Positions 51,599-53,616 of a DNA stretch of 64,000 nt are shown here, piece by piece; the stretch's first letter is position 1; the number at the start of each line of letters is the position of its first letter. Both the position numbers and the translations under genes were made by a program. The stretch is from assembly GCF_030823405.1 (NCBI RefSeq), contig NZ_JAUSXC010000001.1:2649001-2713000 (forward strand), read 5' to 3'. The stretch comes from Chryseobacterium ginsenosidimutans (GTDB taxonomy: Bacteria; Bacteroidota; Bacteroidia; Flavobacteriales; Weeksellaceae). The notes under the pieces were generated by a model, which worked only from the letters and a program-made list of their open reading frames with translations, was not told the DNA's origin and searched no databases.

Positions 51599-52741
51599 TT
51601 AATGATTCATAAATTTTAGGAAAGAAAAATCTGGATTGCGCATTTCTTGCTCATTTTCGGCAGACTCGGTTTGAGCTTGTTTTGCATAAACAAACATTTC
51701 TTCTTCATAAGCACAAATTGCCTCTTCAATGGTTTGAAACTGTCCGTTCATTAAATTTTCTGATAAATATAAAGCATCAACCAAACCAATGTTCACGCCT
51801 TGTCCGGCAAAAGGCGGCATCAAATGTGCAGCGTCTCCAATCAAAGTTATTGGTAAAGGACGATTGGTTTTCCAAGGTTTATTTAATGAAATTTTTCTTG
51901 TCGGTAGTCCTATAAAAAAAGTTGTTGCCTGAAAGAGTTTTTGATAAACTATGTTCCAATCTGAAAGCTTATGAGACAGAAAATCAATAACTTCTTCTGT
52001 ATTTTTAAAGTTTAATCCGTTTCCATTATTCCAGTTTTCAGGTATTTTGAAAATTATGCCATAGGTCAAAGCATCATTATTATAAGGATTAGCAATAAGT
52101 AAATTCCCACCGTGGGAGCTCATCAGTCTTTTGCCATCACATAATTGATAAAATTCCGGACAATTGATTTCCGGTTGAGGAACATCTCCCTGCAGAATAA
52201 ATGTTCCTGTATCTTCAACCTCAGTATCTGTAATGTATTTTCTCACTTTCGACATTCCGCCATTTGCAACAATAACAAAATCAGCCGTTTCATTATAATT
52301 ATTTTCAAATTGCAACAGCCATTTCCCGTTATTCTCTTCAAGATTAATTAACTTTCTATCCCAAATTACAGTGTCATCTTTCAAACTTTCAAGTAAAATT
52401 TTTCTTAAATCGTTACGGTTAATTTCGGGATTATCAAGTTTATTTTCAGGAGTAACCTCTTTTGATATTAATATTTCACCTTTTTCGTTGGCAATATTTA
52501 TCCCCATCGGAATTGACATTTCATAATATTTCTCCAGAAGTCCCGCCTTTTTTAAAGCTTTTTGCCCTGAAACTTTATGAAGATCAAGGGTACCGCCCCA
52601 AATTCTGGCATCGGAATTTTTATCCCTTTCATAAACAGTAATTTCAGTGCCGTTTTGCTGTAATAATCTTGCCATTGTTAATCCAACCGGTCCTGCTCCA
52701 ATGATTGCTGTTTTTTTACCTTTCAGTAAATTATTGTTCAT
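51599..52741 (-). CDS. tet(X)-like: Tet(X)-like FAD-dependent monooxygenase
   Basis: The 380-residue flavoprotein has the dinucleotide-binding start AIIGAGPVGLTMARLLQQNG, the GGTLDLHK block, NPEINRNDLR and the second FAD motif IGDAAHLMPPFAGQGVN. By recall of Tet(X2) (388 residues), long runs match almost word for word: YERD, LDLHK, KKAGLL, DNPEINRNDLR, DTVIWDRKL, ETAD, ANGGMSKVRK and RPLPIT. Tet(X) proteins hydroxylate tetracyclines, including tigecycline, using NADPH. The substrate of this copy is not proven. An AraC-type regulator lies 44 bases upstream on the same strand, which suggests controlled expression. Confidence 0.88.
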   Translation of the reverse strand: MNNNLLKGKKTAIIGAGPVGLTMARLLQQNGTEITVYERDKNSDARIWGGTLDLHKVSGQKALKKAGLLEKYYEMSIPMGINIANEKGEILISKEVTPENKLDNPEINRNDLRKILLESLKDDTVIWDRKLINLEENNGKWLLQFENNYNETADFVIVANGGMSKVRKYITDTEVEDTGTFILQGDVPQPEINCPEFYQLCDGKRLMSSHGGNLLIANPYNNDALTYGIIFKIPENWNNGNGLNFKNTEEVIDFLSHKLSDWNIVYQKLFQATTFFIGLPTRKISLNKPWKTNRPLPITLIGDAAHLMPPFAGQGVNIGLVDALYLSENLMNGQFQTIEEAICAYEEEMFVYAKQAQTESAENEQEMRNPDFSFLKFMNH

Positions 52742-52785
52742 TTTAATGTATTAATTTGACAGCAAAATTCTGAAATACGATTGGT

Positions 52786-53616
52786 TTAAGATTGTAGAAA
52801 CGCGACAAAATTACTGTTGTGAATGTGATCTGCTTTTGCTTTTCTCGCAAATTTAGCAGGTGTTGTTCCGCTGTACTTTTTAAATTCTTTGCTTAAATGC
52901 GCCTGATCTGTGTAGCCTGATTCAATAGCCAGTTCGGCAAAATTAGAATCAGGATGAAGCCATAATGTATTCCGAACCTGCTCAAAACGCATCAGTCCGG
53001 AAACGTCTTTAACGGTATGGCCGGAAGATTGCTTGAATTTTCGTTCCAAAGTACGAACTGTTGAATGTGCTGCATCTGCAATTTTATTGACAGGAAGACT
53101 TCCGTTAGCTTTTCTCATCGCCGCTCCGGCTTTAAATAATAGACTGTCAGTTGAAATTTTACTTTGAATATTCAAGAAATACTGTTTTATTAGACAAATT
53201 GCTTCTTCTATATTATTATTTTTAATGCAATCATGTAATAGAGGTTGAAGTTCTGCAATGGGATGTTCAAAAACGTGTACCTTATTTTTATTCGAAGATA
53301 AGCCGAGCAAATCGAAAACAGTCCATGGGAAACATCTTACAGCAATGATTTCAAAGTTTTCTTTAGTGTAAAAATGAACAGGTTGATTGAGTAATCCCAC
53401 AAGAAAAGGTGAAGGTAATTTCTGCAAAACTCCAATTTGAGATATGCTGCAGCCATTTCCAAAATGAAAAATAATCTCTGCATATCCATCAGGAATTACT
53501 TCAAAACTGGTTTCTGTCTCTCCAAAATCCGATTTATTGTACCAAAAACATTTTATGGAATCGCGAAGTTCTTCCGGCGGTTCAAATTCTTGATGGATGA
53601 TGTTTTTAGCTTTCAT
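52786..53616 (-). CDS. AraC-type transcriptional regulator
   Basis: The 276-residue protein has a DUF6597-like N-terminal sensor region (FWYNKSDFGETETSFEVIPDGYAEIIF, quoted in part) and a C-terminal AraC domain with two helix-turn-helices (IADAAHSTVRTLERKFKQ and ELAIESGYTDQAHLSKEFKKYSG). The inducer is unknown. It lies 44 bases upstream of the Tet(X)-like gene in the same direction with no terminator between, so both may share a transcript. A TAAATTTG box precedes the ATG by 20 bases. Confidence 0.92.
   Translation of the reverse strand: MKAKNIIHQEFEPPEELRDSIKCFWYNKSDFGETETSFEVIPDGYAEIIFHFGNGCSISQIGVLQKLPSPFLVGLLNQPVHFYTKENFEIIAVRCFPWTVFDLLGLSSNKNKVHVFEHPIAELQPLLHDCIKNNNIEEAICLIKQYFLNIQSKISTDSLLFKAGAAMRKANGSLPVNKIADAAHSTVRTLERKFKQSSGHTVKDVSGLMRFEQVRNTLWLHPDSNFAELAIESGYTDQAHLSKEFKKYSGTTPAKFARKAKADHIHNSNFVAFLQS

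What the first reader, a model, noticed from the sequence alone, without database searches (positions are those of the whole stretch)
51599..53616. Chromosomal Tet(X) relative directly downstream of an AraC-type regulator
The 380-residue flavoprotein shares long word-for-word runs with recalled Tet(X2) (for example DNPEINRNDLR, DTVIWDRKL, ANGGMSKVRK). No mobile element, resistance gene or recombinase lies nearby and codon use looks like that of neighbours, so it seems native. The AraC gene sits 44 bases upstream on the same strand. It may represent an ancestral reservoir of tet(X).
Basis: partly seen in the sequence, partly recalled or inferred. Interest (0 to 1): 0.75.

Follow-up and report, generated by a model that had tools for sequence, protein, structure and literature searches.

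The report
Native Tet(X)-like oxygenase with AraC regulator
This bacterium carries a chromosomal cousin of the tetracycline-destroying enzyme Tet(X) next to its own AraC-type switch gene; it belongs to a large, already noticed family whose drug-binding pocket differs from Tet(X), so it is probably a native oxygenase and not the direct source of the resistance gene.

Summary
In detail: a 380-residue flavoprotein (51599-52741, -), 65% identical to Tet(X2), lies 44 bases behind an AraC-type gene. It looks native: the pair fills a slot that is empty in 8 of 9 relatives lacking it, and the enzyme gene has typical GC and codon use. The idea of an ancestral tet(X) reservoir is not supported. It scores 597 bits against a 750 cut-off for Tet(X). 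Trees put Tet(X) in its own clade, nearest to Chitinophagaceae/Sphingobacteriaceae proteins and not to the Chryseobacterium clade of the window gene, though an AU test does not exclude a sister relation (p 0.20-0.25). It keeps 11 of 14 published drug-site residues but has a family-wide alternative pocket signature. Two tested relatives raised no MIC in E. coli (PMC7725328). Such relatives were already described as 'clade I' (PMC7494873). Apparently new: 83 of 101 distinct non-Tet(X) relatives sit beside an AraC regulator, 0 of 19 Tet(X) proteins do. Most likely an AraC-controlled monooxygenase for another phenolic or polycyclic compound; substrate untested.

The parts
51599..52741 (-). FAD-dependent class A monooxygenase, Tet(X)-like, non-Tet(X) pocket signature IGITYI
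   Evidence: ORF; Tet(X2) E 1.7e-166; 597 bits, below the Tet(X) cut-off 750; PF01494; signature
52786..53616 (-). AraC-type regulator, DUF6597 plus HTH_18, directly upstream on the same strand
   Evidence: same pairing in 38 of 63 same-genus genomes with a non-Tet(X) homologue at E 1e-100 or better
53636..53667 (-). promoter-like site TTG-N21-TAAATTTG ahead of the AraC gene (Bacteroidota-type consensus recalled, not from a call); weak evidence
   Evidence: pattern present in 10 of 42 upstream regions, the other nine at different distances (-90 to -191), so no shared site is shown
51075..51536 (-). flank: DUF2383 gene, one border of the slot
   Evidence: direct neighbour of the HAD gene in 8 of 9 same-genus stretches without the pair
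53694..54539 (+). flank: HAD-type hydrolase gene, other border of the slot
   Evidence: next to the AraC gene also in L038, L039, L040

Best explanation
The locus is a native two-gene unit: a DUF6597-AraC regulator followed by an FAD/NADPH class A monooxygenase of the broad Bacteroidota Tet(X)-like family ('clade I' kind). Inferred working: the AraC protein senses a small aromatic or polycyclic compound and switches on its own gene and the enzyme; the enzyme reduces FAD with NADPH, forms a C4a-hydroperoxyflavin and hydroxylates that compound, probably to detoxify it. It is not a Tet(X) and probably not the lineage from which mobile tet(X) came. Shown: family, motifs, pairing, co-inheritance, chromosomal slot, different pocket signature. 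Inferred: co-transcription, induction, detoxifying role, the substrate, lack of useful tetracycline turnover.
For: Tet(X) model 597 bits against cut-off 750. Tet(X) forms one clade (100*; 100/100*) that excludes the window; the window groups with Chryseobacterium proteins (99/97*). Pocket signature IGITYI against NAFHFS in 48 of 50 Tet(X) rows. AraC neighbour in 83 of 101 distinct non-Tet(X) relatives against 0 of 19 distinct Tet(X) proteins (77 of 101 by the stricter count). Regulator and enzyme distances agree over 47 pairs (Mantel rho 0.79, 0 of 2000 permutations). A second DUF6597-AraC gene lies 29 bases ahead of a 39% paralogue in the same genome. Slot empty in 8 of 9 relatives without the pair. 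A full-length tetX1 variant and a Niabella relative gave no MIC increase in E. coli (PMC7725328 passages).
Against: 11 of 14 published drug-site residues are kept, so tetracycline turnover is possible. The AU test does not reject a sister relation to Tet(X) (p 0.203, 0.252). Tet(X3) itself departs at positions 234 and 235. The E. coli negatives come from other sublineages, the authors warn that they are no proof, and another paper credits TetX1 and TetX2 together with reduced tigecycline susceptibility (PMC3827270 passages). No expression or substrate data. Enzyme and regulator are separated in 5 of 44 same-genus genomes with this regulator, and one has no such enzyme.
Confidence: 0.75

Rival explanations
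1. A functional tetracycline-inactivating enzyme and an ancestral reservoir of tet(X).
For: 65% identity and 11 of 14 drug-site residues; sister relation not rejected by AU tests; Flavobacteriaceae proposed as source in PMC7494873 (sections 6 part 1 and 8 read).
Against: Outside the Tet(X) clade in four trees; non-Tet(X) pocket signature; nearest relatives of Tet(X) are other families; two tested relatives without MIC increase.
Confidence: 0.13
2. A decaying or functionless relative whose AraC neighbour is accidental.
For: Three same-genus homologues are split over two ORFs (L102, L103, L104) and one carries an in-frame stop (G002), so loss does occur; patchy presence (64 of 173).
Against: The window ORF is intact with flavin motifs and kept contacts; pairing and co-inheritance with AraC.
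Confidence: 0.07
3. A recently acquired mobile resistance gene.
For: The pair is patchy in the genus and its slot is empty in relatives, so gain or repeated loss did occur.
Against: Typical GC and codon use of the enzyme gene, co-inheritance with AraC, same border genes in window, L038, L039, L040 and L070, no clear bracketing repeats, no mobile genes among 16 proteins scanned.
Confidence: 0.03

Closest known systems
Tet(X)/Tet(X2)-Tet(X6), tetracycline-inactivating monooxygenases (NF033111)
   Same: Class A FAD monooxygenase, 64-65% identity over the whole length, 11 of 14 published drug-site residues
   Different: Below the Tet(X) score cut-off, outside the clade, other residues at 190, 193, 224, 234, 235 and 238, AraC neighbour where 0 of 19 Tet(X) proteins have one
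'Clade I' Tet(X) candidates of Zhang et al. 2020 (PMC7494873, section 8 read)
   Same: Chromosomal relatives at 60-64% identity in Chryseobacterium and other Bacteroidota, outside the named Tet(X) variants
   Different: No feature tested that sets it apart; their 28 sequences were not compared here, so membership is by identity and placement. AraC is not mentioned in that paper (0 occurrences in the find)
tetX1 (full-length variant) and family NF20 of Berglund et al. 2020 (PMC7725328, passages)
   Same: Non-Tet(X) relatives; L128, taken here to be tetX1-type, has the pocket signature IGVTYI
   Different: Another sublineage, on a stretch with a 99% Tet(X2) gene, no AraC neighbour. The NF20 sequence was not seen here
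Second DUF6597-AraC plus monooxygenase pair in the same genome (L101:5219-7170)
   Same: Same two-gene layout, same strand, 29 bases apart
   Different: Enzyme only 37-39% identical

Membership tests
Tet(X) tetracycline-inactivating monooxygenase | Score over NCBIfam NF033111 cut-off (750 bits) | tested here: not met
   597.2 bits
Tet(X) tetracycline-inactivating monooxygenase | More than 80% identity to Tet(X) (criterion used in PMC9156754, passages) | tested here: not met
   64-65%
Tet(X) tetracycline-inactivating monooxygenase | Falls inside the Tet(X) clade | tested here: not met
   Tet(X) clade 100* without the window; 100/100*. Sister relation not excluded (AU p 0.203, 0.252)
Tet(X) tetracycline-inactivating monooxygenase | Drug-site residues of the Tet(X4)-tigecycline structure (14 named in PMC8666040, passages) | tested here: inconclusive
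   11 of 14 kept, 224, 234 and 238 changed
Tet(X) tetracycline-inactivating monooxygenase | Inactivates tetracyclines | not testable with these tools
   Needs an enzyme assay
Class A flavin monooxygenase (PF01494) | FAD_binding_3 domain with Rossmann and GD motifs | tested here: met
   75.9 bits against cut-off 22; glycine motif (residues 15-20) and GDAxH (302-306) in invariant columns of a 25-protein alignment
AraC family regulator | HTH_18 domain | tested here: met
   53.6 bits against cut-off 33.6
'Clade I' Tet(X) candidates (PMC7494873) | 60-64% identity to Tet(X), outside the clade of named Tet(X), in Flavobacteriia/Sphingobacteria | tested here: met
   64-65% identity and placement; their own sequence set was not available

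The most novel reading that the evidence does not exclude
Most of the Tet(X)-like family are AraC-guarded oxygenases of Bacteroidota with a shared non-Tet(X) pocket; mobile Tet(X) descends from a Chitinophagaceae/Sphingobacteriaceae-type sublineage that stands largely outside AraC control, and its pocket changed on the stem of the Tet(X) clade. The resistance enzyme would then be a de-regulated, re-tuned offshoot of an inducible native enzyme, with the window pair a member of the original kind.
Probability: 0.4. Interest if true: 0.6.

Novelty: new member of a known kind. Interest (0 to 1): 0.35.

Why it matters
It shows that a Tet(X)-like hit at about 65% identity in Chryseobacterium should not be counted as a tetracycline-resistance gene, or as the source of tet(X), without a test, and it gives two simple markers (pocket signature, AraC neighbour) that separate most native relatives from true Tet(X) in the set examined. 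If the AraC link is functional, the regulator offers a way to find the native inducer and so the original job of the enzyme family from which tet(X) came.

Tried and rejected
The viral-contig scan confirmed none among 75 pattern matches. The promoter search found one plausible site in the window but no site shared by the relatives. Repeats bracketing the pair were sought; the best direct pair spanning it (33 bases, 73%) looks like a chance match. A mobile-acquisition reading was rejected on slot, GC, codon use and co-inheritance. Use of the tigecycline survey in PMC7494873 as evidence on native Chryseobacterium genes was dropped because its text (95 of 376 Flavobacteriaceae resistant) and its Table 1 (127 of 127 Chryseobacterium resistant) disagree. 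Structure prediction never ran, so the pocket comparison rests on a sequence alignment at 65% identity.

Limits. Regulator counts come from loci chosen by similarity (same genus, family and phylum searches plus the best 80 of a capped scan), not a random sample; 170 loci gave 120 distinct proteins. Tet(X) is one clade, so 83 of 101 against 0 of 19 reflects few evolutionary events. Two of the 19 Tet(X) proteins (L161, L162) had under 300 bases upstream. The broader regulator model was built partly from these same regulators; the stricter count is 47 same-strand, 30 divergent, 24 none. Three split homologues under 340 aa (L102, L103, L104) fell out of the tree by a length filter. The trees use 45 rows that I chose from the 125. 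The signature rows are not de-duplicated.

Full report
What is there. The window lies in a 4.30-Mb single-contig genome at 2649001-2713000. Its genus is Chryseobacterium by inference: the nearest named protein (82%) is from Chryseobacterium ginsenosidimutans, and contigs of same-genus genomes match named Chryseobacterium records by length. The reported ORFs exist as stated: monooxygenase 51599-52741 (-, 380 aa), AraC-type regulator 52786-53616 (-, 276 aa), 44 bases apart. The similarity to Tet(X2) is far beyond chance (E 1.7e-166) and includes the three quoted runs.

Is it a Tet(X)? No, by three tests. (1) NCBIfam's Tet(X) model gives 597 bits against a cut-off of 750. [quoted passage not shown] the Tet(X6) one, L033, is so named by RGI and Tet(X5) by AMRFinder). 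A search with Tet(X2) lists full-length Tet(X) variants down to 82%, one protein of the same clade at 76% (P0163), and then a shelf of relatives at 72% and below (best 120 of 2687 shown). A published variant collection used more than 80% (PMC9156754, passages). (3) In trees of 110, 125, 45 and 45 rows the Tet(X) rows form one clade at full support on a stem of 0.35-0.41; the window gene is elsewhere, with Chryseobacterium proteins (8-row clade 99*; with L158, L160 and L190 99/97*). The rows nearest to Tet(X) are from Chitinophagaceae, Sphingobacteriaceae and MAGs, plus one Bacteroides salyersiae row (99*; 97/96*; 99/96*, after masking 15 pocket columns). Against this: holding the window clade and Tet(X) together costs 12.9 log-likelihood units and is not rejected by the AU test (p 0.203; p 0.252). 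So 'not the direct ancestor' is favoured, not proved.

Pocket. From PMC8666040 (abstract, and passages) I took 14 residues named around tigecycline in Tet(X4), one of them (S238) through a water. The window protein is identical at 11 (Q192, R213, M215, A225, P318, F319, A320, G321, E367, N371, M375) and different at 224, 234 and 238; position 190, named in PMC10327574 (passages), also differs. These differences are a family trait (rows not de-duplicated): at positions 190/193/224/234/235/238, 48 of 50 rows with at least 82% identity to Tet(X2) read NAFHFS; of 44 rows at 70-82%, 42 read IG(V/I)(S/T)YI and two (P0163, P0165) are of Tet(X) type; of 188 rows under 70% none reads NAFHFS and 169 read IGVTYI or IGVSYI. 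The window reads IGITYI. Caution: Tet(X3) reads NAFYLS, so position 234 alone does not decide activity.

Functional evidence in print. PMC7725328 (passages) expressed a full-length tetX1 variant and a gene of family NF20 (found in Niabella) in E. coli and saw no increase in tetracycline or tigecycline MIC; its authors warn that such negatives are not proof. The tetX1-type protein that I could read (L128, Bacteroides salyersiae, 396 aa, directly ahead of a 99% Tet(X2) gene) has the signature IGVTYI. That it is tetX1 is inferred from position and identity, and it belongs to another sublineage than the window gene. The truncated TetX1 does not bind flavin (PMC5988894, passages). On the other side, PMC3827270 (passages) credits TetX1 and TetX2, found together, with reduced tigecycline susceptibility. 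PMC7494873 (passages; section 8 and part 1 of section 6 read) already grouped 28 Tet(X) candidates at 60-64% identity as 'clade I', mainly Chryseobacterium, so the existence of such relatives is known.

The AraC partner. Of 64 same-genus genomes (173 searched) with a homologue at E 1e-100 or better, one (G111) holds a true Tet(X); of the other 63, 38 have the window-type regulator directly upstream on the same strand, 20 have a different, divergent AraC of about 320 aa, and 5 have neither. Turned round, 44 of 173 genomes have the window-type regulator at E 1e-40 or better: 38 next to the enzyme, 3 within 2.6-4.4 kb (G043, G086, G103), 2 elsewhere in a genome with the enzyme (G084, G098), 1 without it (G144). 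Over all distinct loci, 83 of 101 non-Tet(X) relatives have an AraC neighbour (53 same-strand upstream, 30 divergent, 18 none; stricter 47, 30, 24), against 0 of 19 distinct Tet(X) proteins (45 loci), two of which had under 300 bases upstream. The same-strand pairing reaches Mucilaginibacter, Hymenobacter, Larkinella, Pinibacter, Filimonas and Hufsiella. Enzyme and regulator distances correlate over 47 pairs (Mantel rho 0.79, 0 of 2000 permutations). The far relatives L098 and L099 (50% and 48% to the window) have a same-strand gene 24-25 bases upstream, shown to be DUF6597-AraC for L098. In the window's own genome a second DUF6597-AraC gene lies 29 bases ahead of a 39% paralogue; only 4 DUF6597 proteins over the cut-off were found there, so two of them beside such oxygenases is unlikely to be chance. 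Of the relatives nearest to Tet(X), L122-L124 and L126-L132 have no AraC neighbour in the DNA held, while L125 has a shorter DUF6597-AraC and L135, just outside them, a divergent AraC. No paper linking AraC to Tet(X) relatives turned up in two searches (three papers, of which PMC9366087 was checked by passages without such a link and two were seen as listing only; none).

Native locus. In eight of nine stretches from same-genus genomes without the pair the DUF2383 gene and the HAD gene are direct neighbours. In the window the pair lies between them; L038, L039 and L040 carry the pair next to the HAD gene, and L070 next to the DUF2383 gene with the HAD gene 1.7 kb away. No clear repeats bracket the pair. 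The enzyme gene has typical GC and codon use; the AraC gene is at the low end for codon use. The slot shows gain or loss of the two genes together; the direction was not determined.

Mechanism. From knowledge of class A flavin monooxygenases: NADPH reduces FAD, a C4a-hydroperoxyflavin forms and hydroxylates a bound electron-rich ring compound. The gene order, the promoter-like site at 53636-53667 ahead of the AraC gene (weak) and the co-inheritance argue for an autoregulated operon induced by the substrate or a signal for it. Because the changes touch drug-site positions while the flavin-side residues are kept (E46, R117, D311, P318), I expect a different ring compound as main substrate, with weak tetracycline turnover possible. 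These last steps are inference.

Verdict. A real, native-looking and conserved gene pair; an already recognised kind of Tet(X) relative; not Tet(X), and probably not its direct source. The added value is the AraC pairing and the pocket signature across the family.

Noticed in passing
L101:5219-7170 (own genome, about 1978219-1980170): A second DUF6597-AraC plus class A monooxygenase pair, 29 bases apart, with an enzyme 37-39% identical to the window's.
   Followed up: partly
L102, L103, L104 (G128, G083, G002): Homologues linked to the divergent AraC are split over two ORFs and look broken; left as they are.
   Followed up: no
L128:2081-5475: Bacteroides salyersiae: a full-length tetX1-type gene directly ahead of a 99% Tet(X2) gene, with an Erm(F)-like ORF upstream (that name recalled, not searched).
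   Followed up: partly
L094:7009-8151: A second, different FAD_binding_3 monooxygenase lies 93 bases upstream of the Tet(X)-like gene in G043, with a window-type AraC 2.7 kb upstream.
   Followed up: no
PMC7494873, section 6: Text and Table 1 disagree on how many Chryseobacterium and Elizabethkingia isolates were tigecycline-resistant.
   Followed up: no
window 48884-50714: A DoxX-type, a DUF1801/OmdA, an AHSA1-type and an ArsR-type gene lie in a row on the minus strand.
   Followed up: no
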